Made by a program: the position numbers and the translations under genes. Source: Anaerovibrio slackiae (GTDB lineage: Bacteria; Bacillota; Negativicutes; Selenomonadales; Selenomonadaceae). Taken from it: a DNA stretch of 64,000 nt. Within the stretch, counting starts at the first letter, position 1, and every line of letters begins with the position of its first letter. This document shows, one piece after another, positions 44,228-64,000 of this stretch. The stretch is from assembly GCF_009695585.1 (NCBI RefSeq), contig NZ_VUNR01000003.1, positions 1 through 64,000 on the forward strand, written 5' to 3'. The notes below the pieces were generated by a model. That model did no database searches and was not told the origin of the DNA. It saw nothing but the letters and a program-made list of their open reading frames with translations.

Positions 44228-44326
44228 GGCCGTGTTTCTTATGCTTAATTTTTTCGCATGTTGTTTCGATAAAATAACTGACAACGTTTACAACAAAATG
44301 CAATGGTAGAGAGGGTGCATTCACCC

Positions 44327-46723
44327 ATGCTAAATAGACAACAGCGTGATGAGCTGGTAGCAAGCCTGCAAAGCGTAGAGGAGCTTTGGGAGACTGCTGC
44401 CGGCATTGATGCGGTACAAAACAACATAATAATAGAGATTTTACGAGTAGCGGATGATGCCTGCAAGGAGGGGTTATCCGCTACTCGTTGTGTTTTTTAT
44501 CGGGAATTATTTCAGGTGCTGATGGATATCCTGGAGCCTCAGGTGTGGCAGAATTTATCTGCAGATGAGCAGGCAGAATCCAAAAGGCTGGGATTGGAGG
44601 TCTTGAACTGCGCCATAGATGTCTTGCAGCATGAAAAAGAAATAAAAAAAGAAATAGTATTTTTGCCTTATAAGGCTTCCATGTGGGACAGCCTGGAAAG
44701 TGTCTGGCAGGCTGCCTATGCTGACAAGGAACATTGCAATGCCTATGTAGTGCCAATACCTTATGCTGACCGCAAGCCGGATATGACAGTTGCGGAATGG
44801 CACTGCGAAGCAGATATGTTTCCTGACTATGTGCCAGTGCTGGACTGGCAGGAATACACGCTGGAAAAACTGAATGCCATGCGGCCTGATGTAATATTTA
44901 TTCACAATCCTTATGATGACTGCAACAGGGTGACTTCTGTGGAGCCGCAGTATTATTCGCATAACTTGAAGCAGTGTACAGATAAGCTGGTATATATACC
45001 GTACTATGTCTGTGGAGAGATGACGTCTTCACACTTATGCCAGGCACCAGGTATTGTCAATGCGGATTATGTGATTGTGCAGGATGAGAATATCAAGGCA
45101 CAGTTTGAGCAGCATTATCCTGATGGAACGCCACCAGAGGGGAAATTTTTAGCACTGGGCTCACCAAAATTTGACAAGGTGCTTGCAAGCAAAAAAGAAG
45201 ATTTTACCTTGCCTGAGTCGTGGCAGCGCATTGTTAAAGGCAAAAAGGTTGTGCTGTACAATACAAGTCTGGGTGCTGCGCTGGATAACAGTGATATGGT
45301 GTGCAAGAAGCTGCGTTATGTGTTTGATGTTTTCAAAAACAGGCAGGATGTTGCTCTGTGGTGGCGCCCGCATCCATTGATGGAGGCTACATTCCGTTCC
45401 ATGCGCCCGGAACATTATGCTGAGTATGAGCAGATTGTGGCGGAGTATAAGCAGGCTGGCTGGGGGATATATGATGATACGTCTGAGCTACATAGGGCGA
45501 TTGCGTACAGTGATTGCTATTATGGGGATAGAAGTTCGGTTGTAGATTTGTATAAAGTTACTGGGAAATCTATTATGATAGAGTGCTATTGGCTTATAAA
45601 TAAGCATTGTAGTAGATTGCCAAACAAAAGTATAAGTTTTTTAGATGCTTTTTGGAATGATGAAAAAATATATTTTTATAATAATAATAACAGGTGTTTA
45701 AGTAGTTACAATTTTCATAATGGGCTGGAAGAGTTTTTTGCTATGCTATCATTTGATGAGAGCATTATTAGAATCATTGAGCATGATTTGCGAGTGTATT
45801 TTGTTGCTCAGAATGTTCCAGCTGTTTACGAATATAATATTTATGACAAGAAATACAGATGTTATTTACGTGATGGACATATGAGACATAATTATTATCC
45901 TGTTAAGTATGGTGATTGTATATTTTTATTTGATATGTCAGTTTCAAAAAAATCATATTGTTTTGATTTACGCACAAAACAATATTCAGAAATTGAGTTT
46001 TTACATGAAAATAAATTGATAGAATATAAAGTCCTGACAGTAAGTGATGCTTATGGTGATATGGTTGCTATTGCTTTCGATAAGGTAAATATTTTTTTAT
46101 ATAATTTACGGGAAAAAAGATGCTTTTTCAAATACAAAGTAAAAGGTGCTGAGATTTTTGCGTTATCCTTAGATGCGAGTCATGTTTGGTATACGACTTG
46201 TAACGAAGATTGTTTAGTAGATTTAGATTTATTAACTAATAATGAAAACAAAATTAATTTTGGTGGGGAAGCAAAAGAACCATATTCAAGATTATATAAT
46301 ACAAAAGATTTTTTGATATTATTGCCGAGATACAATAAGAACATTGTAGTTATAAATAAAAATAAAAATGTGGTAAGACAATATAGGATAACTGATAGTG
46401 ATAACATGCCAATGCGGTCTGCTTCTATTATGTATGGTGGAATGCTAGTTGGCAATAATTTTTATATTTATCCTTATGCGTTACCATATATGTATGTTAT
46501 TGATTTAGAAAAAGAGACTATAGAAACAAAAGAATTTTTTATAAATTATCAAGATATTAAACAAAGATGGGACATGCCTAATGCTGATAATATAGTTTAC
46601 GTAGAAGAGTATATTTCGTTCGAGCTCTTTATAGCTAATGTAAAAAATCACGAAGTGTTTAGGGCATTGAAAAGTATATGTGGTAAGAATGTTTATAGTA
46701 AGTGTGTGCAAGGAGTGTTTTAG
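44327..46723 (+). CDS. CDP-glycerol glycerophosphotransferase-like protein with unknown C-terminal half
   Basis: 798 residues from the ATG at 44327 (GAGAGGGTG upstream). Residues about 100-410 follow the glycerophosphotransferase (TagB/TagF-like) GT-B pattern: VFLPYKASMWDSLESVW, KLVYIPYYVCGE, GSPKFDKVLASKKEDF, VVLYNTSLGAAL, WWRPHPLMEATFRSM, and DTSELHRAIAYSDCYYGDRS SVVDLYKVTGKS. The last ~370 residues are AT-rich in DNA and look like a beta-propeller (recurrent blade-like strands), without a known family. The base composition changes near 45540, so the gene may be a chimera of a resident 5' part and an acquired 3' part. Likely transfers glycerol-phosphate-type groups in surface polymer synthesis. 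Confidence 0.7.
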   Translation: MLNRQQRDELVASLQSVEELWETAAGIDAVQNNIIIEILRVADDACKEGLSATRCVFYRELFQVLMDILEPQVWQNLSADEQAESKRLGLEVLNCAIDVLQHEKEIKKEIVFLPYKASMWDSLESVWQAAYADKEHCNAYVVPIPYADRKPDMTVAEWHCEADMFPDYVPVLDWQEYTLEKLNAMRPDVIFIHNPYDDCNRVTSVEPQYYSHNLKQCTDKLVYIPYYVCGEMTSSHLCQAPGIVNADYVIVQDENIKAQFEQHYPDGTPPEGKFLALGSPKFDKVLASKKEDFTLPESWQRIVKGKKVVLYNTSLGAALDNSDMVCKKLRYVFDVFKNRQDVALWWRPHPLMEATFRSMRPEHYAEYEQIVAEYKQAGWGIYDDTSELHRAIAYSDCYYGDRSSVVDLYKVTGKSIMIECYWLINKHCSRLPNKSISFLDAFWNDEKIYFYNNNNRCLSSYNFHNGLEEFFAMLSFDESIIRIIEHDLRVYFVAQNVPAVYEYNIYDKKYRCYLRDGHMRHNYYPVKYGDCIFLFDMSVSKKSYCFDLRTKQYSEIEFLHENKLIEYKVLTVSDAYGDMVAIAFDKVNIFLYNLREKRCFFKYKVKGAEIFALSLDASHVWYTTCNEDCLVDLDLLTNNENKINFGGEAKEPYSRLYNTKDFLILLPRYNKNIVVINKNKNVVRQYRITDSDNMPMRSASIMYGGMLVGNNFYIYPYALPYMYVIDLEKETIETKEFFINYQDIKQRWDMPNADNIVYVEEYISFELFIANVKNHEVFRALKSICGKNVYSKCVQGVF

Positions 46724-48829
46724 ATGATGGTAGTATATATTAACAGTTATGTGGAATTAAAAAAACAGATCTCTAAAAAGACTAAATATATAATATATGG
46801 GGCAGGAAAGATGGGGAGGCTCTTATTTAGTTTTATGCATACAAATGATATAGATAATGAGTTAACTTGTTTTTTAGAAACACAACATAGTAATGATTAT
46901 GAGTTATTTGCGAAAAAAGTATATAGTCTTGCAACAATACCTAAAGAGTATTTGGGGGGAGAATATTCGGTTATAATTGCAACATCAGAAGACAACCATG
47001 AAAGTATGCTGAATGCTATACAGAAATTTGACTTTGGGGGCATATATTGCTTAAAAAATAATTTTTTTAAGGAAATAGCTATAGAGCTAAGACGAGAAAA
47101 ATATAAATATTGGAATGATAGATTACAAAAAAATGTAGAAAGAATAACTGATACATCTAAAGAAAACGGTGTCTTATTAATTACGCCACCATATTGGGAT
47201 GTGTATGCTCCTTTCAGTGCAGTGCCGTCTTTAGTGGCTGCTATGAAGCAAAAATTTGTGGAAGTAGAACAGCTTGATTTGGGAATAGAATGTTTTCATG
47301 TGGCTATTAGAGAGTTTTGGGGAGAGATAGCACAACGTTTTATAAGTGAAAGATATTATGATATGGTTGTGTCTCAATATCATTATAATCCATATAATAC
47401 ATATGAAGATTACAAAAAAGACGTTTGGTTCTTTAGCCAAGACAGCTTTCCATTTAGAGAAATCAAACAGCGAAGTTGTGATTTTAATAAAATTCAGTTG
47501 GGGGTATTAACTGCATTTTATGATGAGATATTAAATATGGAATCATCATTTATAGATTTTGATTCGGTTAAAAGTATTATTGACGATGAAGACAACTTTC
47601 TGTGTTCAAATCTGTTTGAAACTATATTGCAGGAAAAGATATGGAAAAGGCTAACGCAAAAACGATGTTTGTATGGAATTTCTGTAACTAGTGTCGGTCA
47701 GTTTTTGCCTGCGTGCAAAATAGCAAAGTTGATCAAAAGAATTCATAAAGGTGCAAAAGTTGTTATTGGTGGAAGTTGTGTAGACGTTTTCTTGAGGAGT
47801 GATTGTTGCTGTAAAATTGATTTGCATAGGTATTTTGATTATGTAATTGTGGGTGAAGGTGAATCGGCTTTATGTAGTTTATATGATTATTCTAATAATG
47901 TGAGCAAAGGCATAGAGCTTGATATAATGGATATTCCTAATTTAGCGTTTATAGATGCGAATAACATTGTTAAGTATACAACTAGTGTTTTGGAAGATGT
48001 TGAGGGGTTGTCTGTAGCAGATTATGATGATTTAGATTTGGATATGTATGTGTCACCTAAATTAATTCTTCCATATCAGGCATCTAGGGGATGTCATTAT
48101 GGGTATTGTGCATTTTGTAATCATGATGAAAAATATAGACATAATTACAGACCTAAGACAGCTAAAAAAATAGTAGAAGATCTAGTGCTTTTGAAAAAAA
48201 AATATGGTGTTACTGATATTCAATTTGTAGATGAAGCTATACGTCCAGATCAGTTTGAGAAGATGGTATATGAAATGGCTGCTAATCTTGAATTCAAGCA
48301 TATAAATTGGATTTATTATTCTCGTGTAAGCTTGGAGTATAACAAAGATATGCTAAAAAAGGCATATGCAAATGGTTGCCGTATGGTAATGTTTGGAATA
48401 GAAACGTTTAATCAGAGATTATTGAATTTTATCAAAAAAGGTATTAACAGTGAGGCATCGAAATACTGCATAAAACTGTTTCATGAGAATAAAATAAAAG
48501 TGTATGCGTGGATGTTATGCAATTTACCATCAGAGACATTGGATGAATTATGCGATGATATAGATGAAGTGAAGAATCAAATGAAATATTTGGATGCAGT
48601 GGCTCCTGGTATTTTTAGATTGGAAAAGAATACAGATATGTATAATAATTATTCCAAGTACAATATTTTATCTATAGATAATGCATGTAAAGAAAGATTT
48701 GTCTCACATAATAATGGTGAAATCATAGATCAAGATGGCATCAAAAATTGTTTTCAAGGACGATATGTACCGTTAATAAGCAAGTACTTTTTTTCGTGCA
48801 ATAGATACGATGTTTATTTTTCCAAATGA
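46724..48829 (+). CDS. B12-binding-type radical SAM protein with N-terminal Rossmann module
   Basis: 701 residues; AAGGAG lies eight bases before the start, which abuts the previous stop. Residues about 18-120 are the cluster-wide Rossmann module (YIIYGAGKMGRLLFSFMHTN, SVIIATSEDN). About 145-400 looks like a cobalamin-binding-type domain (VLLITPPYWDVYAPF, KGAKVVIGGSCVDVF, DYVIVGEGESAL). The radical SAM core follows with QASRGCHYGYCAFCNHD: here the cluster motif is Cx4CxxC, one residue longer than the standard Cx3CxxC. QFVDEAIRPDQF and FGIETFNQRLLNFIKKG are typical of B12 radical SAM methylases. It may methylate or rearrange a sugar or lipid precursor in this cluster; substrate unknown. Confidence 0.75.
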   Translation: MMVVYINSYVELKKQISKKTKYIIYGAGKMGRLLFSFMHTNDIDNELTCFLETQHSNDYELFAKKVYSLATIPKEYLGGEYSVIIATSEDNHESMLNAIQKFDFGGIYCLKNNFFKEIAIELRREKYKYWNDRLQKNVERITDTSKENGVLLITPPYWDVYAPFSAVPSLVAAMKQKFVEVEQLDLGIECFHVAIREFWGEIAQRFISERYYDMVVSQYHYNPYNTYEDYKKDVWFFSQDSFPFREIKQRSCDFNKIQLGVLTAFYDEILNMESSFIDFDSVKSIIDDEDNFLCSNLFETILQEKIWKRLTQKRCLYGISVTSVGQFLPACKIAKLIKRIHKGAKVVIGGSCVDVFLRSDCCCKIDLHRYFDYVIVGEGESALCSLYDYSNNVSKGIELDIMDIPNLAFIDANNIVKYTTSVLEDVEGLSVADYDDLDLDMYVSPKLILPYQASRGCHYGYCAFCNHDEKYRHNYRPKTAKKIVEDLVLLKKKYGVTDIQFVDEAIRPDQFEKMVYEMAANLEFKHINWIYYSRVSLEYNKDMLKKAYANGCRMVMFGIETFNQRLLNFIKKGINSEASKYCIKLFHENKIKVYAWMLCNLPSETLDELCDDIDEVKNQMKYLDAVAPGIFRLEKNTDMYNNYSKYNILSIDNACKERFVSHNNGEIIDQDGIKNCFQGRYVPLISKYFFSCNRYDVYFSK

Positions 48830-48840
48830 GGTGTTTGGCT

Positions 48841-49947
48841 ATGGTAAAACTTACTAATAATCTGAAAGAATTATCTACTAGGGAGGGAGAATCGTTTAGT
48901 ATATATGGATATGGAAAAATGGGAAAGTATTTAGAACTATACTTGCGTGCACATAATATCGAAATTCGGAATATAATAGACACGAATCCCCAAACTAATA
49001 CTAAAACGATTGATGAGGTGATAGAGGATAAGGAACATAATTTTGTGGTACCTGTATATAATGATGAGGCAAAAAACAATATTACGGATGCACTTATTAA
49101 ACATGGGTACGGAAATATTAACGTTTTAACTAACAAATGCTTAAATCAATTAGATCAAATCACAAATAAAAAACTAAGATTTCAGACTCATTTAGTGGAG
49201 CATTGTAATTTGAAATGTAGAGGGTGTTACCATTTTTCTTCACTAGCAGAAGCAGAATTCTTGTCACTGGAAGAGTATGAGAAAGATGTTAGACGTTTGT
49301 CAGAGCTTTTTGATGGTAAAATGGAAGAAATTCTTCTGTTAGGGGGAGAGCCTTTGTTACATCCTCTATGTGAAGAGTTTTTGTATGTTACTAGGAAATA
49401 TTTTAAAGTAGGAAAATTAAAAGTTTTGTCAAATGGAACTTTGTTGTTAGGGAAGACTGAAAAATTTTTCAAAGCTTTTAACGAGTGTTCAGCCGAACTG
49501 TGGATAACAAAATATCCAATTAGTTTTGATTATGATAAGGCTGAAGAACATGCAAAGTCATATGGGGTAGATATAAAGTATTTTAATCGTGAGCCAGTAC
49601 GAACTTTGGGGCATCAGCCGTTGGATTTGGAAGGAAAACAAGATTTTAAGCAAAATTATTATAATTGCTATAGAGCAAATGAATGTGTTGATTTAAAGCA
49701 TGGGAAGTTATATTCATGCATAATACCAGCAGAGATTGCTCCGTTTGTGAAGTATTTCAAGATGGATAATCCAGTAAAGGATACAGATGGTGTTGATATC
49801 TATGCAGTAAAAGATTATGAAGATTTATTAGAGAGATTGTACATGCCTATGGAATTTTGCAGGTTTTGTAATAGGAATGATGTTGCTATATTTGGACGGA
49901 TACCATGGCAGAGAAGTATGTTTGATATAAAAGAGTGGACTTTGTAA
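48841..49947 (+). CDS. Radical SAM protein with N-terminal Rossmann module
   Basis: 368 residues from the ATG at 48841 (GAGGTG upstream). Residues about 15-105 are the shared module (FSIYGYGKMGKYLELYLRAH, then IDTNPQT). Radical SAM core from QTHLVEHCNLKCRGCYHFSS (Cx3CxxC), with LLLGGEPLLHPLCEEFL and SNGTLLLGKTEKFF. C-terminal Cys (NCYRANECVDLKHGKLYSCI, FCRFCNR) could hold an auxiliary cluster as in SPASM/twitch enzymes. Follows the first radical SAM gene by 11 bases. Function in the cluster is unknown. Confidence 0.78.
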   Translation: MVKLTNNLKELSTREGESFSIYGYGKMGKYLELYLRAHNIEIRNIIDTNPQTNTKTIDEVIEDKEHNFVVPVYNDEAKNNITDALIKHGYGNINVLTNKCLNQLDQITNKKLRFQTHLVEHCNLKCRGCYHFSSLAEAEFLSLEEYEKDVRRLSELFDGKMEEILLLGGEPLLHPLCEEFLYVTRKYFKVGKLKVLSNGTLLLGKTEKFFKAFNECSAELWITKYPISFDYDKAEEHAKSYGVDIKYFNREPVRTLGHQPLDLEGKQDFKQNYYNCYRANECVDLKHGKLYSCIIPAEIAPFVKYFKMDNPVKDTDGVDIYAVKDYEDLLERLYMPMEFCRFCNRNDVAIFGRIPWQRSMFDIKEWTL

Positions 49948-50103
49948 TTTAGGGAGTATGAAATTTGCTTCTGTATATATCATAACATATTAAGCGAGAT
50001 TATGTAGTGGCTTGAGCTGAACATGAAAAGTTTTGCTAAAGTATAGGTTAAGATATATTTTTTAATGTTAAATAATGTTTATGGTGTTTGTGGGGTGGTA
50101 GGT

Positions 50104-51582: not shown

Positions 51583-51610
51583 CAGGCTGTTTTTTACGAG
51601 GTAGATTTTT

Positions 51611-52583: not shown

Positions 52584-53630
52584 ATGAATAATAAAAACGT
52601 AATTATGTTTGGATTAGGGGGGGCGGAACGATATTTCGATGAAAATAAAGCTAGTCAAATTCATATTGTTGCAGTGATTGATAATGATATAAAAAAGCAT
52701 GGAACTATAAAATTAAAAAATGATGTGGTGCACGTTATTGGTGCTGAACAAATACCATACTTAAAATATGATGAGATTTTGGTGGTATCGCACAATAGAT
52801 ATAGTACGTTTGAAATTGTTAGTCAGCTATTTGAGCTGGGGGTTGATGTAAATAAAATTAAGGTTTGGACAGGCCGGAATTCAGTAGAAAAGTTTTGCTA
52901 TGTCAATAAGCATGGGAATATAGTTTATTCGGTAAGGGGGGTGTTGTTTCAAATAAAATACAAGAGCGATATTATGCTTTTGGAAGAGATTTTTATAAAA
53001 GGTGAGTATAATTTTTATATATCTAATGAGAATAGTAAGATTATAGTTTTTGACATAGGTATGAATACTGGATTTGCATCGTTGTATTTTTCACATATAA
53101 AGAATGTGCATAAAGTGTATTCATATGAACCATTTTCTGAACCATATAATAGTGCGAAGGAAAATTTTCTCCTTAATGATTGTGCAGACAAGATTATATC
53201 TAAGTGTATTGGAATAAGTGATGCTAATATTGTATGCGAAGAAAATTTTAGTTCTGACTGGATTACAGCCTCACGTACAGATGGTATAGTGAATTCTTCT
53301 ATGAAAAATGTGAGATTGGAAAAAGTTCAATTGGCAGATGTATATGAAGAATTTTATAAAATTATGCTACAAGAGGGGTTAGATAATTGCTATGTTTTAA
53401 AATGTGATTGCGAGGGAAGCGAGTATAAAATATTTTCACGATTAGCTGATATGAGGATATTGTCAAAATTTTCTGTTATTATCGCAGAAACTCATGATGG
53501 TAAACAAGATATCGTGTTGGATATATTAAAAAATGATTCATATGCATGTTTTTATGAAAGTATTAATGAATTGCAGGGGGTAGTTAGAGCTGTTAAAGTT
53601 AATGGTTATGATGCTGGAGAAGGGAAATAA
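52584..53630 (+). CDS. FkbM family methyltransferase with N-terminal Rossmann module
   Basis: 348 residues; GGAGG precedes the start. Residues 1-115 are the shared module (VIMFGLGGAERYFDENKASQ, AVIDNDIKKHG, ILVVSHNRYST). FkbM-type methyltransferase from about 150: IVFDIGMNTGFASLYFSHIK (SAM loop), VYSYEPFSEPYNSAKENFLL and VLKCDCEGSEYKIFSRLAD, with the family's typical EGSE segment. FkbM enzymes O-methylate sugars or other surface molecules. Part of the AT-rich glycan cluster. Confidence 0.8.
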   Translation: MNNKNVIMFGLGGAERYFDENKASQIHIVAVIDNDIKKHGTIKLKNDVVHVIGAEQIPYLKYDEILVVSHNRYSTFEIVSQLFELGVDVNKIKVWTGRNSVEKFCYVNKHGNIVYSVRGVLFQIKYKSDIMLLEEIFIKGEYNFYISNENSKIIVFDIGMNTGFASLYFSHIKNVHKVYSYEPFSEPYNSAKENFLLNDCADKIISKCIGISDANIVCEENFSSDWITASRTDGIVNSSMKNVRLEKVQLADVYEEFYKIMLQEGLDNCYVLKCDCEGSEYKIFSRLADMRILSKFSVIIAETHDGKQDIVLDILKNDSYACFYESINELQGVVRAVKVNGYDAGEGK

Positions 53631-54582: not shown

Positions 54583-54716
54583 TTTGTGAGATGTTATGAA
54601 ATAGATGTAATTATGTATATTTTATAATGATGCGGTGTATTTTCTTAGTAGTTGTACGATAGATGTACATTAGGATGCATTTTTTATGGTACTAAATAAG
54701 GTTGTGTGGAAATGTT

Positions 54717-55817
54717 ATGGTGAATTGTGCTTTAAAGTATGAAGAAATAGTTGAAACTGTTTATATTAATTCAGTTGATGAATTTTATAAAAACATAGTT
54801 TACAATAAAGAGCTGCCACATTATATATATCGTGGGCATAGTAAATCAGATAGTTATAAATTGCAGCCAGGTTTATTACGAAATCTCCAGGACACGTCTA
54901 AAAAGAGACGGGAGTTTTATATCAATGAGTTGAGAGCTTTGATTTTGTTTTATACCGAGGCCAATAAGCATGGATTATATGTACCCAAAGTGGACTCTTT
55001 TTTTCAGCATGGACTCGCGAATCATTTTGATGTATCTTTAATGTTAAAAGATACAGAGTGGAAATGGCTTTCAGATGATTTAATTGAATTAACTTCATTA
55101 GCTCAGCATTATGGCATGAAAACTAGATTACTGGATTGGACTCAGAATATCAGGGTGGCTTTATATTTTGCTTGCTCGGATAATATAAAAAATGAAGAGG
55201 ACATGGCAATATGGTGTATTGATGCAATGTATTTAGGGGATTGGAATAACGATAGTATTACAGATATTTCCTTGGCAAATGTTTTGTCATATAAGGGTAA
55301 TGGAGATCGTGCAGAGAAATATGCATTGATTCGTGCGTTGAAAGATACAAATCTGCCTATACGATTTTTTCTGCCTCGGTACTACAAGAATGATAATATT
55401 GCTGCCCAACGAGGGGTTTTGTCTATGTGGCAATATAATCTGGCTTGTAAAGAAATATACCGAAATTCAGATAAAAGAAATGATATAGCAGAATTACCTC
55501 GTTCTGATACTATTCCTACTGATATAGAAAAGTTGCGAAATAGTATTAGTGAGCATATGGACGCGTTTTTAGAGGCTGATATAGTTCGCGATACAGAACC
55601 ATTAGATAAGTTGCTTTTAGATTATTTTGATCAATGCAAAAATAGGAGGGAAAAGATAAGAGCTCGCCAATATAAGATACTATACAAATATGTTTTAAAA
55701 AAAGATTTGAAGGATGAGTTTTTATCCCGATTAAAAGCAGATGGTTATGATGAAGCTAGTATTTTTCCAGGATATGAAAGTATTGTAAAAGTTGTAAATA
55801 ATGAATTGTCGTTGTGA
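54717..55817 (+). CDS. FRG domain-containing protein
   Basis: 366 residues from the ATG at 54717 (no strong ribosome site). FRG domain: [20 protein letters not shown] (F/Y-R-G motif) and [29 protein letters not shown], the two diagnostic segments. The domain is of unknown biochemical function and is frequent in defence islands and prophages, which is why a defence role is considered here. Ends with a four-base overlap with the frame of the next gene. Confidence 0.85.
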
Positions 55818-55837
55818 GTGTAAAGGAAAATAGTCTT

Positions 55838-57061
55838 ATGATAGGGGTTATAGGTGCAGGATATGTCGGTATGTCATTGGCTGTACTGCTGGCACGGATA
55901 TGGCCGATACGATTGATAGACATTAAAGCAGAAAAAATAAATAAGATACGGCAGGGGATATCTCCAATTGCAGATGAGGATATTGAGAGGATCATGCCGG
56001 ATTGCCTTGAGAATGTGCAGGCAGATACGGATATTGGCGTATGTGAGGATTGCGACATGGTAATTTTTGCCCTGCCGACTAATTATGACAGCGAAAAAAA
56101 TTATTTTGATACTTCTATTTTGGATGGAGCTGTAGGTGTCGTTTTAGAGATCAATCCTCAAGCCGTAATCGTTATTAAATCTACAGTGCCGGTGGGCTAT
56201 ACAGAAAAACTTCGTAGCAGATTTTGTGGTGCGAGGATAATGTTCAGCCCGGAGTTTTTGCGTGAGTCTAGAGCACTGCATGATAATCTTTATCCATCGC
56301 GCATTATTGTAGGTGCAGCTGAAGCCGACATGGAACAGGCAAGGTTTTGGGGGGAGTTATTGCGACAGGCAGCGGAAAAGCAGGAGGTTTCAGTGCTTTT
56401 TATGAGTCCTACGGAAGCCGAGGCCGTAAAGCTGTTTTCCAATACCTATCTTGCTTTGCGGGTGGCATATTTTAATGAGCTGGATTCTTACGCAGAGATT
56501 AAAGGCCTGGATAGCAGGAAAATTATTGAAGGTGTAGGCCTTGATCCGCGGATTGGCAATTTCTATAATAATCCTTCCTTTGGTTATGGTGGATACTGTT
56601 TGCCAAAGGACACCAAGCAGCTTTTGGCAAATTATGAGGATGTGCCGGAAAATCTGATTGAGGCGATTGTCAATTCCAATCGGACACGCAAAGATTTTAT
56701 TGCGGATCAGGTCTTGAAAAAAGCTGGATATTATGCCTATGGCAGTCATAATGTATATGATGGTCTTGATGAGCATGAGGTGACGATAGGAATTTATCGC
56801 CTGACAATGAAAAGTAATAGTGATAATTTCAGGCAGAGTGCGATTCAGGGAGTGATGAAGCGTATAAAGGCAAAAGGTGCCAAGGTAATTATTTATGAGC
56901 CGTTATTGCAGGATGGCAGTACCTTTTTCGGCAGTAAAGTGGTAAATGATTTATCGGAGTTTAAATGTTTGTCTGATTGCATTGTTGCCAATAGATATGA
57001 TGAGTGCTTGGAGGATGTATCTGATAAGGTTTATACGCGGGATTTGTATAAACGGGATTAA
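55838..57061 (+). CDS. ugd: UDP-glucose 6-dehydrogenase
   Basis: 407 residues from ATG at 55838 (AAAGGA upstream); a GTG eight codons earlier overlaps the FRG stop and is less likely. NAD-binding [42 protein letters not shown], and the catalytic Cys in [19 protein letters not shown]. Oxidises UDP-glucose to UDP-glucuronate for polysaccharide synthesis. The higher GC of this gene compared with neighbours suggests a different origin. Confidence 0.93.
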
Positions 57062-57162
57062 AATTTCTTAAGAAAATAGTACTAATTTGTTGATATTTTA
57101 TTAGAGATTTTTACTGTGTTTGGACAGACAATTAGATGCGATGGTAGTTGGTGGAGATAAAT

Positions 57163-58494
57163 ATGAGTGAACAGGTTACTATAATAATGCCAGTCTATAA
57201 TCCTGGCAAATATTTGTGTCCGTGCTTGGATTCACTTTTGGCACAGACGATGGAAGATTTTCGCATTATTGCGATAGATGATGGTTCTACTGATAATTCA
57301 TGGGATGTTTTACAGGAATATGCTGCACAGGATGCGAGGGTGTTGCCGCAGCAAAATCCATACAATATAGGAGCAGCCAGGACACGGAATATTGGTATCC
57401 AGCTGGCTAGGGGGGAGTATGTGGTTATCCTTGATGCTGATGATTATTTTGAGCCTGATTATTTGGAGTGTCTATGGACAGCATGTAAAGAAAATGATTT
57501 AGATATTGCTATATGTGATTTTTATCGGCGTGATGAATTAGCAGGGAAGGAAATTTTAGTTACGCCACCACATACATTTCAGTCAATAATTAATAAGCCA
57601 TTTAATTGGAAAGAAATACCACGATATATTTTTCAGTTATTTCAATTTCCTCCTTACTTAAAAATGTATAGAAGGATATTCATTAGTGAATATAGTGTTT
57701 TATTTCAAGATTTGTCTAATTCAAATGATGTTTATTTTAGTGAAATGTCTTTGATATATGCCAATCGCATTATGCATATAGCTAAGCCGTTATTGCATTA
57801 TAGATATAATACTGGACAACAAATTTCAACACCGCGTGGGAGAAATATAGAATGTTTATTGTGGGCTTTTATGAAGACTTATAATGAGTTATGTCGATTG
57901 GGTATTTATGAGGCGTTGAAAAAAGGATTTTTTTCTCATGTTGCATTTACGGTCTGTGCATGTAGTGGTTATGTATCTAGAGAAAAGGAGAGTGCGTATT
58001 TTGAACTTTGGCAGGAGCGAGGACTGCCAAGTTTAGATATGTTTAATTTAACTAGAGAATGTTTTAATTCAAGTTTTGCTTATAAAAAATGGCAAGCACT
58101 AAAAAAAGGATGCAATTTTGAAGATTTAATAACTGAAGTAGTGTTTAAAGAGGAAACGTATAGAGCTTTTTTTCATGAGAGTTCTGTACGAAATTTGGGT
58201 ATTGCCCATTGGGGATATGGAAAATTAGGAAAAGAATTTCAGGAATATGCTCAAAAATATAATTTTCAGGTGGTTGAATTTTATGATAAAGATTGTTCAA
58301 AATGGGGAGAATATAATGGCATTAGCGTAAAAAGTTTTCATGAATGCAGTCCTTTAGCTGAGATGATAGTTGTTACTAATGAAAGATTTATTGATGATGT
58401 TTTAAATCAGACGATGGGTACTTCTTTAAAAGTTTTTGATTTTACGGCATATTGCTTATATGGAGTTGGATTTGAGGAGTCTATATGTTACTAA
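57163..58494 (+). CDS. Family 2 glycosyltransferase with C-terminal Rossmann module
   Basis: 443 residues from the ATG at 57163 (GGTGGAG upstream). GT-A domain: VTIIMPVYNPGKYLCPCLDS, IAIDDGSTDNSWDVL and the metal-binding DxD in VVILDADDYFEPDYLE. After a helical region, residues about 345-440 are the shared module (GIAHWGYGKLGKEFQEYAQK, EFYDKDCSKWG, MIVVTNERFIDDV). Adds a sugar in surface glycan assembly; donor and acceptor unknown. Overlaps the next gene by ten bases. Confidence 0.87.
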   Translation: MSEQVTIIMPVYNPGKYLCPCLDSLLAQTMEDFRIIAIDDGSTDNSWDVLQEYAAQDARVLPQQNPYNIGAARTRNIGIQLARGEYVVILDADDYFEPDYLECLWTACKENDLDIAICDFYRRDELAGKEILVTPPHTFQSIINKPFNWKEIPRYIFQLFQFPPYLKMYRRIFISEYSVLFQDLSNSNDVYFSEMSLIYANRIMHIAKPLLHYRYNTGQQISTPRGRNIECLLWAFMKTYNELCRLGIYEALKKGFFSHVAFTVCACSGYVSREKESAYFELWQERGLPSLDMFNLTRECFNSSFAYKKWQALKKGCNFEDLITEVVFKEETYRAFFHESSVRNLGIAHWGYGKLGKEFQEYAQKYNFQVVEFYDKDCSKWGEYNGISVKSFHECSPLAEMIVVTNERFIDDVLNQTMGTSLKVFDFTAYCLYGVGFEESICY

Positions 58495-59744
58495 GTGTTT
58501 TAGTTCCGGTTTATAATGTAGAAAAGTATGTAGCAAGATGCATTGATTCATTGTTGAGTCAGACATATAGAGATCTTGAAATCGTCTTGGTGGATGATGG
58601 TTCAACTGATAAATCAGGATATATATGTGACGTGTATGCAAAGAGTGATACGAGGATAAAAGTTATACATAAAGACAATGGTGGCTTGGCATCAGCTCGC
58701 TGTGCAGGATTAATGGCTAGTACGGGAGAATACGTGGCTTTTGTAGATAGTGATGATTATGTAGATAGTGATATGTTTGCACAATTAGTGGAACCTATAC
58801 TAAAAGGTGATGGTGTTGATATCAGTCTTGGTGGTCACGTTATAAACAAAATGGATGGTAGTATAGTAAATATTTTTACCGATAGAACTAGTGAAATATA
58901 TTATGATTTTATAGAAGCGATGGCTGATATGTTTGAAGGAAAGAAATTCATTTGGAGTTTATGTGGAAAGGTATATAAACGTGAATTGTTTATACAAGAT
59001 GCTATAATGGCTAATTGGCCGTCATCTCATGGTGAAGATACATATGCCAACTCCATGGTGTTCCCTATGTCAAAGAAGATGATATTTCTTCCTGTGTATG
59101 GTTATCATTACTGCATGCGCAGTGATAGTATGATGAATAACTCTTTTAATGTTGGGAAATTGGTATCTATTGACATAGTAACTTCTTTAATGAAGAAATA
59201 TAGTGATAATTCTTTAAGATTATTTAATGCTCTGGGAAATTTGATGGTTAATTTGTCTATTGTATATCTAAAAGCTATGTTGAGTGAATATCCAAAATAT
59301 AAGTCATTTATTTCTAAATATCAGGTTAATTTATCTATGTGGTATGATTGTATTGAATTGGATGTTCAACAAAATTATGCAATCCCAATTGTACTGAAGA
59401 AACCATATGAATATTTAAAGTGGAAAACTAATTGGGAAAGAAAAATATTTTCGTTTTGCAATTCTAGTGGAATCCATGAAACTTACATATATGGTACGGG
59501 AGCCTATGGGCAGGCAACTTTAGATTTATTAGAAGTGATGGGGATAAAGATAGCTGGTTTTATAGAAACTAATCCAGTAAAAAAAACATATAAGAATTAT
59601 TTTGTGTATAAAGTTGATGATATTGCTATCGGATCATTTGTAATAATAGCTATGAATTATAACAATACTTTATTGGTGGAAGATATTGTAAAAGCAAAAG
59701 AAATGACTGCATTATATGTATGGCAATATTTCCTCATTGTATAG
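58485..59744 (+). CDS. Family 2 glycosyltransferase with C-terminal Rossmann module
   Basis: 419 residues. [40 protein letters not shown], and DxD in [13 protein letters not shown]. Residues about 325-415 carry the module ([42 protein letters not shown]). Start overlaps the end of the upstream glycosyltransferase, indicating tight coupling. Confidence 0.87.
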
Positions 59745-59772
59745 ATTGCTTTATTCGGAAAGGTCGATTTCA

Positions 59773-60714
59773 ATGTTGGTTGCTGAAGAAAATTTTTTGT
59801 TTTGTTGCGAAAAGAAAATAGAAGAAATTGTAACAGCGAAAGGAAAACGTGCAATTTATTTATGGGGATGTGGTCATGGAGGCAAGCTAGCAGTAGATTT
59901 TTTCAGGAAAAAAGGTGTACAGATAACAGGGTGTGTGGATCAAAAAGTTGATGATGGAATGAAGTTTTTTTGTGATATTCCGGTGCTTAGCCCAAGTTTG
60001 GTAAATAAAGATAAGCATTATATAGTAGTAACTTTATTGAAGGCGTGTCCGGATATTGTTGAATTATTGTATACCAAAGGGTTTTCTGATGATGATTTTT
60101 GTTATATCAGTGAACTAGTAAATGAAAATGATATAGTTTATCGTGGTTGTCATGTTGGCAGATATACCTATGGATATGAAACTTTGTTAAAGGAATATCC
60201 CATGGCTGTCAGTATAGGAAGATTTTGTTCTATAAATGGCACTGCACGTATTTGGAATAACCATGCTATGACATGTATAACAACGCATCCATTTTTAGAC
60301 TATCCAGGGATGTTTCCGTGGAAGAAGTATAAGCAACGTTTGAATTTTGTTGATAAATATGGCGTTTATAAAAATAATGCGGCTTATGAAGATAGTAAGC
60401 TTCGCAAAAATGAACCTGTAATTATTGGTAATGATGTATGGATTGGTGCGAATGTTATTATTTTGCCGGGAGTAAACATTGGTCATGGAGCAGTTATTGC
60501 TGCCGGGGCTGTTGTTACAAAGGATGTTGAACCTTATGCGATAGTTGGAGGGGTACCTGCAAAGCTTATAAAATATAGATTTAATGCTGAGGAGAGGCAA
60601 AAATTATTAAGTATAGCGTGGTGGAATTGGTCGCTTGATAAAATTGAGAAGAATATAGAATTGTTTTATCAGCCACAAGTATTTTTGTCTAGTCTGGGAA
60701 AATTTTTGGAGTGA
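59773..60714 (+). CDS. Left-handed beta-helix acyltransferase with N-terminal Rossmann module
   Basis: 313 residues from ATG at 59773 (GGAAAGG upstream). Residues about 25-120 are the module ([39 protein letters not shown]). The rest is a CatB/XAT-type hexapeptide-repeat acyltransferase: [74 protein letters not shown]. Probably O-acetylates a sugar of the glycan. PglD-type sugar acetyltransferases have a comparable N-terminal Rossmann plus beta-helix layout, which may explain the origin of the module. Confidence 0.85.
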
Positions 60715-60719
60715 TATGG

Positions 60720-62264
60720 ATGAAAAAAAGTATAAAAGCATTGGCAATGTATTTGCCGCAATTTCATCAAGTAAAAGAAAATGATGAATGGTGGGGATCA
60801 GGGTACACAGAGTGGACTGCTGTGAAGAATGGGGAACCCTTATATAATGGGCATGTGCAGCCTAAAAAACCTTTGGAAGGTAAATATTATAATTTGCTGG
60901 ATAAAGAAACTTTGAGATGGCAGTCCGAGTTGGCCAAAAAATATGGAATTGCTGGTTTTTGCTTTTATCATTATTGGTTTGGCAAAGATAGAAAGATATT
61001 AGAAAAGCCAGCAGAAATATTACTTGATAATAAGGATATAGATATGCCTTTTTGTTTTTGTTGGGATTCAAGTCAATGGGCACGTACATGGTCTAAAATG
61101 GGTAATGCCTGGGCTGATGCTTTTGAGCCAAAGCGTGACAAAAATGACACAAGTAATGGTGTTTTGATTGAGCAGAAATATGGTAATGAAGCCTTTTGGC
61201 GTAGGCACTTTGATTATTTACTTGAGTTTTTCAAAGATAATCGATATATAAAAGTAGACGGAAAACCAGTATTTATGTTTTACACTTCATATAAAATTCC
61301 TTGTTTTGAGCGAATGGTTTTTTATTGGAGACGATGGGCTAAGGAAGAAGGTTTTCCAGATTTATATATAATAGGCTTCTTTTCTCCTAGTCTGTGTTTA
61401 GATGCTGTGGTTACTCCTATGGCATTTAATTTGAGTGCTTTGGGGTATAATCCTTCACTGGAGTTTTTAATACAAAATACATCAGTGAGGGGATACAATT
61501 ATGATGAAGTATGGGAAGACTATTTGAATTATATTCCTTCTAGTATAAATAAAACTTTGTGGCTATGTACAGTAGATTTTGACGATACACCGCGACGTGG
61601 GAAAAATGGGCGTGTGTATATTGGTGCTTCTCCAGAAAAGTTTAAAAAATATTTCTCTCGCCTAGTTTCCAAAAGTGTTGCTGATGATAATCCATTTGTT
61701 TTTATAGATGCTTGGAATGAATGGGGAGAAGGCAAGTATTTAGAACCAGACGTTGTTCATGGGTATGGGTATTTGAAATCTGTACGTGATGTTATGTCTA
61801 AGACGGGGTCAAATGAAAAAGCAGGAACTGCTTATAACGAAAATATGCTGTTGAGATATTTGGGAAAGCTAGAGAAACAACTGCTTAGGGCTAGTATACA
61901 TCAGGATTGTCTCACCGAATGGATGTATTTAAAAATGGAAGGCAAGAGTATTGCAGATTATTTATGTAAATGTGGGTTTGAAAAGATTGCTATCTATGGA
62001 TGTGGTATATATGGCAAGATGTTATATAATGAGCTGAAAGATAGTGTTATTGATATTGCATATTTTATAGATATTCATAAGGATGGATTGAAACATACTG
62101 AAGTTGCAGATGTTTATAGTCCAGATGAAAGTTTGCCTTTGTGCGACGTTATTATCGTGTCGATTATTGGTGAATACGTGGATATTTTTAAGGTATTAAA
62201 ACAAAAAAACAATATACCAATAATATCATTATATGAAGTTGTGTATGAAGCTAAAGAGAGTTGA
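60720..62264 (+). CDS. WbsX-like (GH99-type) glycan protein with C-terminal Rossmann module
   Basis: 514 residues from ATG at 60720 (TTGGAG upstream). WbsX family: LAMYLPQFHQVKENDEWWGS, GYTEWTAVKNGEPLYNGHVQ, YGIAGFCFYHYWFGKDRKIL, FCFCWDSSQWARTW, and FVFIDAWNEWGEGKYLEPD near residue 330. Its TIM-barrel type fold is related to GH99 mannanases; in O-antigen and surface-glycan clusters it is thought to be a glycosyl-transfer or glycosidase-like enzyme. Residues about 425-510 are the shared module (KIAIYGCGIYGKMLYNELKD, AYFIDIHKDG, VIIVSIIGEYVDI). Confidence 0.87.
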   Translation: MKKSIKALAMYLPQFHQVKENDEWWGSGYTEWTAVKNGEPLYNGHVQPKKPLEGKYYNLLDKETLRWQSELAKKYGIAGFCFYHYWFGKDRKILEKPAEILLDNKDIDMPFCFCWDSSQWARTWSKMGNAWADAFEPKRDKNDTSNGVLIEQKYGNEAFWRRHFDYLLEFFKDNRYIKVDGKPVFMFYTSYKIPCFERMVFYWRRWAKEEGFPDLYIIGFFSPSLCLDAVVTPMAFNLSALGYNPSLEFLIQNTSVRGYNYDEVWEDYLNYIPSSINKTLWLCTVDFDDTPRRGKNGRVYIGASPEKFKKYFSRLVSKSVADDNPFVFIDAWNEWGEGKYLEPDVVHGYGYLKSVRDVMSKTGSNEKAGTAYNENMLLRYLGKLEKQLLRASIHQDCLTEWMYLKMEGKSIADYLCKCGFEKIAIYGCGIYGKMLYNELKDSVIDIAYFIDIHKDGLKHTEVADVYSPDESLPLCDVIIVSIIGEYVDIFKVLKQKNNIPIISLYEVVYEAKES

Positions 62265-62269
62265 TAAAA

Positions 62270-63415
62270 GTGAATTATAGTTTAGCAGGTGTTTTTTTCC
62301 CACCGATTCAAAAAATTAATCAGGGTGAAAGTATTGTTATATATGGTTATGGCAATGTAGGGCGCCAGTATATTGCAACTTTATCCGGCATGAGGATTTG
62401 TCATATTTTATTTGCAGTGGATGCTAATTATGACAAAATCGAAAAAGGTTGGCTAGGTGTAGAAGTAAAGGCACCTAAAAGTATTTTATCTGAGCCAGAA
62501 GCGCGTATTTTATTGGCTATTGGGTCAAGGACTGTTGCGAGGCAGATTATGGGGATGTTAAAAGCGTGGGGTATTGCAGAGAACCGCATAATATATGAGT
62601 ACCCTGAATTTTCGCCATTTCCAATGCCTGTTGCTGTTGAGAGAAAGGCATTGGATAATTATGCAGAAAGAGAAAGGTATTGTGATTACTTTAAGGAACT
62701 TCATAGTCTATTGATAACAAAGCAATGTGTAGATGGAGAGCTAGTGCGTGTCGGGGGCAGTAATGATGGTGGCTATGTTATGTCTGAAGCTGCTCTGAAT
62801 GGTGGTATTGCATATAGCTTTGGAATAAATGATGATGTTGCCTGGGATAGTGATATGGTAAAACGTGGTTATGATATTTATATGTATGATCACACTATAT
62901 CTGCTTTGCCGGAAGAATGTGCGCGGTTTCATTTTGATAGGAAAGGTATTTCGGCAGGCAGTATTTCTGTAGCTCCTTTATTTACCCTTGAAGATTTATT
63001 ACGGGAAAATGGGCATAGAGGTATTCAGCACATGGTTTTGAAAATGGATGTGGAAGGGGCTGAATGGGGATTTTTGCATAGTACGTCGTCAGATGTTATG
63101 CAGCAGTTTGACCAGATTGTATTTGAATTGCATGGTTTGCTGAACTTAGACAAGCAAGAGGAGATATTGGCAGCATTGAGAAAAATAAATGCAACTCACC
63201 AGCTTGTGCATATTCATGCTAACAATTACGCTAATAGTGTTTCTTGGGGAGAATTAGTTGTGTCTGATGCTATTGAGGTTTCATATATACGCAGAGGGAT
63301 ATGTAGTTTTTTTGATTGGCATCCGATATATCCTTTAACATTGGATGCACCATGTTGGAAAGAGGTATCGGAATTGGTTTTGGGAAATTGGAATGGCATA
63401 CAATGCGTGGAGTAG
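62270..63415 (+). CDS. FkbM family methyltransferase with N-terminal Rossmann module
   Basis: 381 residues from GTG at 62270 (AGAGAG upstream); a TTG nine bases earlier overlaps the previous stop. Residues about 20-115 are the module (IVIYGYGNVGRQYIATLSGM, AVDANYDKIEKG, ILLAIGSRTVARQI). From about 150, the methyltransferase: LVRVGGSNDGGYVMSEAALN, YSFGINDDVAWDSDMVKRGY and MVLKMDVEGAEWGFLHS. The last is the FkbM signature. Probably methylates a surface sugar. Confidence 0.82.
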   Translation: MNYSLAGVFFPPIQKINQGESIVIYGYGNVGRQYIATLSGMRICHILFAVDANYDKIEKGWLGVEVKAPKSILSEPEARILLAIGSRTVARQIMGMLKAWGIAENRIIYEYPEFSPFPMPVAVERKALDNYAERERYCDYFKELHSLLITKQCVDGELVRVGGSNDGGYVMSEAALNGGIAYSFGINDDVAWDSDMVKRGYDIYMYDHTISALPEECARFHFDRKGISAGSISVAPLFTLEDLLRENGHRGIQHMVLKMDVEGAEWGFLHSTSSDVMQQFDQIVFELHGLLNLDKQEEILAALRKINATHQLVHIHANNYANSVSWGELVVSDAIEVSYIRRGICSFFDWHPIYPLTLDAPCWKEVSELVLGNWNGIQCVE

Positions 63416-63426
63416 CGGAGGTTGTT

Positions 63427-64000
63427 ATGGAGAGTCCGTATAGATATTTATTTCCGTTTGAACGAATACCTTATGGTGCAAAAATTGTGATTTATGGAGC
63501 AGGGCGGTTAGGTCAGGAATATTTACAGCAGTTGCATATTACTAAATATTGTCACGTTGTTGCCATGATAGATCGCAATGCGGAGAAATATCAGGGGACA
63601 GTGATTAATGTGTATAAACCGTGCTATTTGTGTGAATTAGAATTTGATTATGTTGTAGTTGCTTTGCGAGTGAGTATTGCGTTAAATGAAGTATTACGGG
63701 TTTTGCATGCAGAAGGTGTGTCAGAAGATCGGATTGTGTATGTTTTAGAAAGAGATGTACAAAATTTTAGTTTGTTTAGAGAACAATCTGTTTCGGGAAT
63801 TTCGCCTAGAGATTTGTCATATGTACGGTTTGGAAAAAGTTGCTCACTTGCTGTAATGATGTTGGGTGGTTTGGGTGATTTAGTAGTACAAAAAAAGTTT
63901 GTTTTAGAAATTGTTAAAAAAATTCCTCAAATACATATTGATGTGTACTCTGTGGGAAAAATTTCTTTTTTAAGAGAGTTATATTTTGATTGTCAGGTTG
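63427..64000 (+). CDS. Rossmann module fused to a GT9-like domain (partial, runs off the window)
   Basis: Starts at 63427 with GGAGG upstream. 191 codons are visible. Residues about 18-115: module (KIVIYGAGRLGQEYLQQLHI, VVAMIDRNAEKYQG, DYVVVALRVSIALN). Then SLAVMMLGGLGDLVVQKKFV, whose GGLGDLV resembles the first loop of ADP-heptose-transferase-like (GT9) GT-B enzymes. The rest lies beyond the window, so the domain assignment is tentative. Confidence 0.6.
   Translation, partial: MESPYRYLFPFERIPYGAKIVIYGAGRLGQEYLQQLHITKYCHVVAMIDRNAEKYQGTVINVYKPCYLCELEFDYVVVALRVSIALNEVLRVLHAEGVSEDRIVYVLERDVQNFSLFREQSVSGISPRDLSYVRFGKSCSLAVMMLGGLGDLVVQKKFVLEIVKKIPQIHIDVYSVGKISFLRELYFDCQV

What the first reader, a model, noticed from the sequence alone, without database searches (positions are those of the whole stretch)
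46724..49947. Two adjacent radical SAM enzymes in a surface-glycan cluster
One has a B12-binding-type domain and an unusual Cx4CxxC cluster motif, the other a classical motif with C-terminal cysteines, and both have the shared Rossmann module. Radical SAM steps are rare in glycan assembly and suggest C-methylated, deoxy or otherwise rearranged sugars, or modification of a carrier peptide.
Basis: partly seen in the sequence, partly recalled or inferred. Interest (0 to 1): 0.55.

Follow-up and report, generated by a model that had tools for sequence, protein, structure and literature searches.

The report
Radical enzyme pair in glycan cluster
A gut-type bacterium carries, inside a gene cluster for building a surface sugar polymer, two neighbouring radical enzymes that probably oxidise the sugars and add a carbon branch to them, chemistry best known from antibiotic-making pathways.

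Summary
rSAM1 (46724-48829) is a cobalamin-type radical SAM enzyme: fold matches are OxsB, TsrM, CysS, TokK, MgmA. rSAM2 (48826-49947) is a twitch-type radical SAM enzyme; by far its best fold match is the spectinomycin dehydrogenase SpeY (Z 23.4), then BtrN (14.3); four auxiliary-cluster cysteines are invariant. Both carry an N-terminal Rossmann module shared by nine enzymes of this low-GC glycan cluster. TagF-like / rSAM1 / rSAM2 recurs in a second Selenomonadaceae genome. Cx4CxxC is uncommon but known: OxsB and the sugar C-methyltransferase GenD1 (PMC4340712) have it. Best reading: tailoring enzymes of a surface polymer, rSAM2 oxidising a C-OH, rSAM1 C-methylating a sugar or polyol. Substrates are unproven. 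The peptide-carrier idea has no support. The only close rSAM1 relative outside the family (Paenibacillus jilunlii, 38%) lacks the module and lies in a natural-product-like cluster. New variant of a known kind.

The parts
44303..46723 (+). TagF-like CDP-polyol phosphotransferase candidate, with a C-terminal repeat region that may be a beta-propeller
   Evidence: PF04464 matches 4 of 4 members of the family alignment, best 3.6e-7, but the window's own copy has 18.2 bits against a cut-off of 22.1; the whole-genome family search missed it. Propeller: only PF25171 E 0.029, read by eye.
46724..48829 (+). rSAM1: cobalamin-dependent-type radical SAM enzyme, 701 aa
   Evidence: Pfam; fold OxsB Z 18.5, TsrM 16.2, CysS 15.8, TokK 14.8, MgmA 14.6; orthologue in G237
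46769..47128 (+). rSAM1 N-terminal Rossmann module
   Evidence: left-out profile E 2.8e-5; absent from the P. jilunlii homologue
47621..47878 (+). rSAM1 B12-binding domain (the part matched by PF02310)
   Evidence: below cut-off; fold match
48092..48118 (+). rSAM1 cluster motif C457-x4-C462-x2-C465
   Evidence: sequence; census; OxsB alignment
48826..49947 (+). rSAM2: twitch-type radical SAM enzyme, SpeY/BtrN-like, 373 aa
   Evidence: Pfam; SpeY Z 23.4, rmsd 2.7, 248 aligned, 22% identity; BtrN Z 14.3; profile vs SpeY 1.3e-19
48880..49179 (+). rSAM2 N-terminal Rossmann module
   Evidence: left-out profile E 2.6e-7
49204..49227 (+). rSAM2 SAM-cluster motif C127-x3-C131-x2-C134
   Evidence: invariant in 8 of 8 and 14 of 14
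49666..49869 (+). rSAM2 twitch auxiliary-cluster cysteines C281, C298, C345, C348
   Evidence: invariant in 8 of 8 and 14 of 14
52584..53630 (+). FkbM-type methyltransferase with N-terminal module; a corresponding gene is beside rSAM2 in G237 and G035
   Evidence: PF05050; module E 1.2e-3
55814..57061 (+). UDP-glucose 6-dehydrogenase type; 61% identical copy in the G035 cluster
57148..58494 (+). GT2 glycosyltransferase with C-terminal module
   Evidence: PF00535; module E 1e-7
58485..59744 (+). GT2 glycosyltransferase with C-terminal module
   Evidence: PF00535; module E 3e-7
59716..60714 (+). hexapeptide acyltransferase with N-terminal module
   Evidence: PF14602/PF00132; module E 5.3e-7
60711..62264 (+). 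WbsX glycosyltransferase with C-terminal module
   Evidence: PF14307 5e-110; module E 1.8e-8
62261..63415 (+). FkbM-type methyltransferase with N-terminal module
   Evidence: PF05050; module E 3.1e-10
63316..64000 (+). glycosyltransferase (GT9-like by eye; no Pfam hit at 1e-3) with N-terminal module; runs on to about 64857 on the contig, followed by a GT2 and by IspD-, alcohol-dehydrogenase- and ribulose-phosphate-epimerase-type genes up to about 68543

Best explanation
The pair are two consecutive tailoring enzymes of a surface polymer whose cluster also encodes a TagF-like polyol-phosphate transferase and CDP-polyol-type precursor genes. rSAM2 works like SpeY and BtrN: SAM cleavage at the C127/131/134 cluster gives a 5'-deoxyadenosyl radical that takes the hydrogen from a carbon bearing a hydroxyl; the twitch cluster (C281/298/345/348) takes the second electron, leaving a ketone on a sugar, cyclitol or polyol. 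rSAM1 works like cobalamin radical SAM methyltransferases: one SAM makes the radical on a substrate carbon, a second supplies a methyl group through cobalamin, giving a C-methyl branch, as GenD1 does at C-4'' of a gentamicin sugar. The N-terminal Rossmann module that nine enzymes of the cluster share probably brings them to a common nucleotide- or lipid-linked intermediate. Shown: domain types, gene order, conservation, module sharing. Inferred: substrate, reaction, sequence of steps, role of the module.
For: Fold of rSAM2: SpeY first at Z 23.4, nine units above BtrN at 14.3; both are alcohol dehydrogenases of cyclitol-type antibiotics (SpeY as dehydrogenase from its entry title, substrates recalled); profile match to SpeY 1.3e-19; four auxiliary cysteines invariant in 14 of 14. 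Fold of rSAM1: the first 11 rows are all cobalamin radical SAM enzymes; best NCBIfam model for 3 of 3 lineage members is a C-methyltransferase family, though under its cut-off; GenD1, a cobalamin radical SAM sugar C-methyltransferase, has the same Cx4Cx2C motif (passages of PMC4340712). Context: TagF-like / rSAM1 / rSAM2 / FkbM conserved in G237, with IspD-, RPE- and alcohol-dehydrogenase-type genes at 60-75% identity in 2 of 2 other clusters, G237 and G035. Of 30 rSAM2-family rows in 26 loci, 6 of 6 with a detected module have glycan-type and module-bearing neighbours. Of the 14 closest phage-contig relatives, 8 have a next gene in the stretch held, and in 5 of these 8 it is a GT2 gene.
Against: No substrate or activity is known for any close relative. 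rSAM1 is closest by sequence in the PDB to OxsB, which is not a methyltransferase (recalled). The rSAM1 model is of moderate confidence (pLDDT 67.5; the cluster loop 446-477 under 50). The P. jilunlii homologue lies in a natural-product-like cluster. G035 has rSAM2 without rSAM1, so the two need not act together. Most distant rSAM2 relatives have no glycan-type neighbours. The TagF-like label is weak for the window's own copy.
Confidence: 0.5

Rival explanations
1. Same glycan setting, different radical chemistry: rSAM2 decarboxylates, epimerises or deaminates a sugar (like BlsE or DesII), for instance a uronic acid made through the cluster's UDP-glucose dehydrogenase; rSAM1 oxidises or contracts a ring like OxsB.
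For: OxsB is rSAM1's best PDB match by sequence and fold (Z 18.5); BlsE and DesII appear among rSAM2's fold matches (Z 11.6 and 10.6); BlsE decarboxylates cytosylglucuronic acid (abstract and passages of PMC3715490); a UDP-glucose dehydrogenase lies in the G000 and G035 clusters.
Against: SpeY scores twice as high as BlsE for rSAM2; four of the five cobalamin enzyme types matched by rSAM1 (TsrM and MgmA by entry title, CysS and TokK recalled) are methyltransferases; sequence distance to OxsB is large (E 4.9e-5).
Confidence: 0.25
2. The enzymes act on a small molecule or natural product made by part of this cluster, not on the polymer.
For: The P. jilunlii rSAM1 homologue (38% over 552 residues) lies with AMP-binding, acyl-carrier, aminotransferase, ABC-transporter and duplicate PheS/PheT genes.
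Against: That homologue lacks the Rossmann module; that genome has only weak rSAM2 hits (best E 1.8e-5); the ORFs annotated in the window cluster include no acyl-carrier, ligase or exporter gene and are full of glycosyltransferases.
Confidence: 0.12
3. Peptide or protein maturation (RiPP-like).
For: rSAM1's best NCBIfam model is a RiPP maturation radical SAM C-methyltransferase, 102.5 bits; several twitch/SPASM enzymes modify peptides.
Against: Score far under the cut-off of 281.85; true members in the same class score 500.7 and 521.2 and have Cx7CxxC; the tree sets the lineage apart (99/99); no conserved small ORF by the pair.
Confidence: 0.08

Closest known systems
SpeY (7wzv, twitch radical SAM dehydrogenase of spectinomycin biosynthesis) and BtrN (4m7t)
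   Same: Radical SAM core plus one-cluster twitch domain; the whole catalytic part of rSAM2 superposes on SpeY (Z 23.4, rmsd 2.7, 248 residues)
   Different: 22% identity; rSAM2 has an extra N-terminal Rossmann module and sits in a surface-glycan cluster; substrate unknown
Cobalamin-dependent radical SAM enzymes OxsB, TsrM, CysS, TokK, MgmA
   Same: B12-binding domain followed by radical SAM core; OxsB shares Cx4CxxC
   Different: low identity (13-20%); extra N-terminal module; no natural-product genes noticed nearby in the window
GenK/GenD1, cobalamin radical SAM sugar C-methyltransferases of gentamicin
   Same: GenD1 has the Cx4Cx2C motif (PMC4340712, passages) and acts on a sugar carbon
TIGR03975 RiPP maturation radical SAM C-methyltransferases
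   Same: best NCBIfam model for rSAM1, its G237 orthologue and the P. jilunlii homologue (102.5, 136.1, 155.9 bits)
   Different: all three under the cut-off of 281.85; members have Cx7CxxC and form another branch
Radical SAM genes in the Brachyspira hyodysenteriae plasmid rhamnose/LOS block
   Same: Radical SAM genes beside glycosyltransferase, epimerase and rfbC (PMC4267127, passages)
   Different: the types of radical SAM enzyme were not compared here

Membership tests
Radical SAM superfamily (PF04055) | profile score over curated cut-off | tested here: met
   46.1 and 38.3 bits against 29.5
Radical SAM superfamily (PF04055) | three-cysteine cluster motif | tested here: met
   rSAM2 Cx3CxxC; rSAM1 Cx4CxxC as in OxsB
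Cobalamin-dependent radical SAM enzymes | B12-binding domain N-terminal to the radical SAM core | tested here: met
   fold matches over ~146-635 to five cobalamin enzyme types; PF02310 itself 25.5 bits, under its cut-off of 32.1
Cobalamin-dependent radical SAM enzymes | binds cobalamin and transfers methyl | not testable with these tools
   needs purified enzyme
TIGR03975 RiPP maturation radical SAM C-methyltransferase | score over 281.85 bits | tested here: not met
   102.5 bits
PhpK family P-methyltransferase TIGR04479 | score over 600 bits | tested here: not met
   87.8 bits
GenK/GenD1 sugar C-methyltransferases | Cx4Cx2C motif | tested here: met
   window C457-C465; motif of GenD1 from PMC4340712
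GenK/GenD1 sugar C-methyltransferases | sequence kinship | not tested
   no GenK/GenD1 sequence was at hand and no model of that name came up
SpeY/BtrN twitch radical SAM dehydrogenases | radical SAM core plus twitch fold | tested here: met
   SpeY Z 23.4, BtrN Z 14.3
SpeY/BtrN twitch radical SAM dehydrogenases | four cysteines for one auxiliary cluster | tested here: met
   C281, C298, C345, C348 invariant in 14 of 14; that BtrN uses a like-spaced set is recalled
SpeY/BtrN twitch radical SAM dehydrogenases | oxidises a secondary alcohol | not testable with these tools
   needs an assay
TagF-like CDP-polyol phosphotransferases (PF04464), for 44303-46723 | profile score over cut-off | tested here: inconclusive
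   4 of 4 family members match, best 3.6e-7; window copy 18.2 bits against 22.1; missed in the genome search

The most novel reading that the evidence does not exclude
A dedicated radical 'oxidise and C-methylate' pair, built from antibiotic-type enzymes fitted with a cluster-wide Rossmann docking module, makes branched or keto residues in a teichoic-acid-like surface polymer of anaerobic gut bacteria; related twitch enzymes with a glycosyltransferase partner are carried by phages and may alter glycans too.
Probability: 0.3. Interest if true: 0.72.

Novelty: new variant of a known kind. Interest (0 to 1): 0.48.

Why it matters
If true, radical chemistry used in antibiotic pathways also shapes bacterial surface polymers, giving sugars that no standard NDP-sugar pathway explains. 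The shared module gives a sequence handle to find such clusters and to ask what holds their enzymes together. The SpeY-like family, which reaches from glycan clusters to phages, can be tested with one type of assay.

Tried and rejected
Carrier-peptide idea: small ORFs in the gaps beside the pair (window, G237, G035) gave no conserved candidate.

BlsE as the closest solved relative of rSAM2: first guessed from memory for 7wzv; the BlsE motif in PMC3715490 did not fit and the fold search showed 7wzv to be SpeY.

Rossmann module elsewhere: not significant in P. jilunlii (best E 0.035) nor in any of 1184 viral-locus ORFs (best 0.12); by eye the N-termini of G021, G246 and G119 rSAM2 look alike, but the profile did not find them at 1e-2. 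I first read a module into the second P. jilunlii B12 enzyme by eye (also noted so in the notebook); one search does not support it.

Promoters and terminators: 59 promoter-like sites against 48.6 +/- 6.8 in shuffles, 1 terminator-like against 3.5; no conclusion.

Literature: searches of the open-access library listed no paper, by title and abstract start, on a radical SAM enzyme of known reaction in a surface polysaccharide; (7WZV, SpeY) found nothing. Subscription papers are mostly not held. Papers seen beyond listings: passages of PMC4267127, PMC3322345, PMC3715490, PMC4340712.

The tree has 28 rows and several long branches; only the three-row lineage is relied on.

Full report
What is there. 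Two ORFs overlap by four bases (ATGA) at window 46724-48829 and 48826-49947; the first begins directly after the stop codon of the gene before it. The stretch from 44.3 kb on is low in G+C (0.342 against 0.522 for bases 1-40000; the pair 0.318), and runs as a glycan-type cluster to about 68.5 kb on the contig: TagF-like transferase, rSAM1, rSAM2, FkbM methyltransferases, UDP-glucose dehydrogenase, three GT2 enzymes, an acyltransferase, a WbsX enzyme, a GT9-like enzyme (by eye), and IspD-, alcohol-dehydrogenase- and ribulose-phosphate-epimerase-type genes. No sugar-polymer exporter was noticed among these; export genes elsewhere were not searched.

rSAM1. Residues ~150-700 are a complete cobalamin-type radical SAM enzyme and residues 1-150 an added module. 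The predicted structure (mean pLDDT 67.5) matches OxsB (Z 18.5), TsrM (16.2), CysS (15.8), TokK (14.8) and MgmA (14.6); the first 11 rows are cobalamin enzymes. By sequence the PDB gives OxsB (E 4.9e-5) and a weaker hit, 9ccb, which titles MgmA. NCBIfam's best model, TIGR03975, is far under its cut-off for the window protein (102.5 of 281.85), its G237 orthologue (136.1) and the P. jilunlii homologue (155.9). The motif Cx4CxxC is shared by these three and by the distant Neolewinella protein; other B12-type relatives sampled have x3 or x7. The window, G237 and P. jilunlii proteins form a clade with support 99/99 among 28 rows.

rSAM1 is rare. A full-length homologue was found in 1 other genome among 380 of the class (G237, 45%). 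A pattern scan of about 85,000 species gave 4 loci: that same MAG (Selenomonadaceae, water-deer rumen), P. jilunlii (38%), Neolewinella (24%) and Anammoxibacter (25%). In 398 genomes of the phylum one more, distant and isolated one appeared (29%, G531). Pattern scans can miss relatives.

rSAM2. The predicted structure has block means of pLDDT of 72-98 through the catalytic part bar one block of 65, and 35-67 through the module and its link. SpeY, the twitch radical SAM dehydrogenase of spectinomycin biosynthesis, matches at Z 23.4, rmsd 2.7, 248 residues; BtrN follows at 14.3, viperin at about 12 (Foldseek agrees). The family profile hits SpeY at 1.3e-19. C281, C298, C345 and C348, the set expected to hold one auxiliary cluster, are invariant in 8 of 8 and 14 of 14 aligned sequences. 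What SpeY and BtrN do chemically is from the entry titles and from memory; the SpeY paper was not found.

rSAM2's family is wide. 42 of 380 class genomes have a match at E 1e-15 or better. I looked at 26 loci from 25 of those 42 genomes, giving 30 rows. Of 7 rows closest to the family profile (E 1e-110 or better) 7 have at least one glycan-type neighbour within six ORFs; of the other 23 rows 5 do. The module was found in 6 of 30 rows, and 6 of 6 of these have glycan-type and module-bearing neighbours; of the 24 without it, 6 have a glycan-type neighbour. 'Glycan-type' means similar to the window cluster's own genes or to a GT2 profile built from them, so other glycan genes would be missed. The glycan link thus belongs to the close, module-bearing branch, not to the family at large. 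Four members are long fusions, with tetratricopeptide repeats (Pfam-confirmed in the one scanned, L104) and a glycosyltransferase-like stretch read by eye, ahead of the radical SAM domain.

The module. Nine proteins of the window cluster carry it, N-terminal in six and C-terminal in three; every one is recovered when left out of the profile (E 2e-12 to 1.2e-3, 434 ORFs). The cluster's UDP-glucose dehydrogenase and alcohol dehydrogenase, ordinary Rossmann proteins, were not hit at 1e-3 in the same search. No Pfam family covers it (best PglD_N in 2 of 15 members); its best solved relative is 3nkl, labelled UDP-quinovosamine 4-dehydrogenase, a 141-residue piece (2e-5). Binding of a nucleotide-linked or common lipid-linked intermediate, or docking of the enzymes on each other, are both open.

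Conserved neighbourhood. In G237 the order is TagF-like / rSAM1 / rSAM2 / FkbM, with the IspD/RPE/dehydrogenase trio at the far end; in G035 rSAM2 (46-47%) follows an FkbM gene, a second radical SAM enzyme follows it, rSAM1 is absent, and the trio is again at the end (60-75% identity over the two clusters). In the window an AAA_15 ATPase and a 265-aa gene stand between rSAM2 and the FkbM gene. So rSAM2 can work without rSAM1, while rSAM1 was seen only with rSAM2 within the family (2 of 2).

Mechanism. rSAM2 as an alcohol dehydrogenase and rSAM1 as a C-methyltransferase of a sugar or polyol is the reading that best fits fold, cysteines and context. GenD1 shows that a cobalamin radical SAM enzyme with Cx4Cx2C methylates a sugar carbon (PMC4340712, passages). 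Whether the two act on one residue, in which order, and on nucleotide-linked, lipid-linked or polymer substrate is not known.

Against it. OxsB, the nearest solved relative of rSAM1, is not a methyltransferase (recalled), and the P. jilunlii homologue sits in a cluster with AMP-binding, acyl-carrier, aminotransferase, decarboxylase and ABC-transporter genes and a PheS that has a second, 65% identical copy in the genome, which suggests a secreted inhibitor. The catalytic type therefore does not prove a glycan substrate; the cluster and the module argue for one.

Known or new. Radical SAM genes beside surface-sugar genes have been noted (Brachyspira plasmid, PMC4267127), and both enzyme types are known from antibiotics. 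New here, as far as the searches named under Tried and rejected go, are the rSAM1 lineage, the module fused to both, and the conserved pair. I rate it a new variant of a known kind.

Noticed in passing
L114:2190-3550, L115:1900-3056, L116:7986-9346, L120:7989-9386, L127:7989-9385: Metagenomic phage contigs carry a two-gene unit: a 250-aa rSAM2-like enzyme without the module, directly followed by a GT2 glycosyltransferase, in some beside a topoisomerase gene. 7 of the 8 GT2 ORFs among 1398 ORFs in 80 viral loci abut an rSAM2-like gene (loci are centred on that gene; Pfam check of four GT2s).
   Followed up: partly
L072 (Paenibacillus jilunlii), 1-20137: Natural-product-like cluster with an rSAM1 homologue, a second B12-type radical SAM enzyme, AMP-binding and carrier proteins, two ABC transporters and an extra PheS/PheT pair (second PheS in the genome 65% identical); perhaps a PheRS inhibitor with its resistance genes.
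   Followed up: partly
L104:7522-10185, L105:1192-3567, L106:985-3603, L107:8005-10368: Proteins of 787-887 aa, tetratricopeptide repeats (Pfam, L104 only) plus a glycosyltransferase-like stretch read by eye, ending in an rSAM2-type domain.
   Followed up: partly
L098:5481-9457 and L067:5528-10502: rSAM2-like genes beside a NeuA-like cytidylyltransferase (by eye) and an HMGL-like aldolase (Pfam in L098): perhaps an unusual CMP-sugar pathway.
   Followed up: no
window 50065-52408: AAA_15 ATPase and a 265-aa gene without a Pfam hit stand between rSAM2 and the FkbM gene; not at that place in G237; they look like an inserted defence-type pair.
   Followed up: no
window 41220-43069 and 54702-55817: An ATPase (by eye) plus a DUF3226/OLD-TOPRIM-like gene upstream of the cluster, and an FRG-domain gene inside it.
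   Followed up: no
L066:9107-9994 (G041): An rSAM2-like gene of 295 aa beside genes that look like prophage tail and lysis genes (by eye) in a bacterial chromosome.
   Followed up: no
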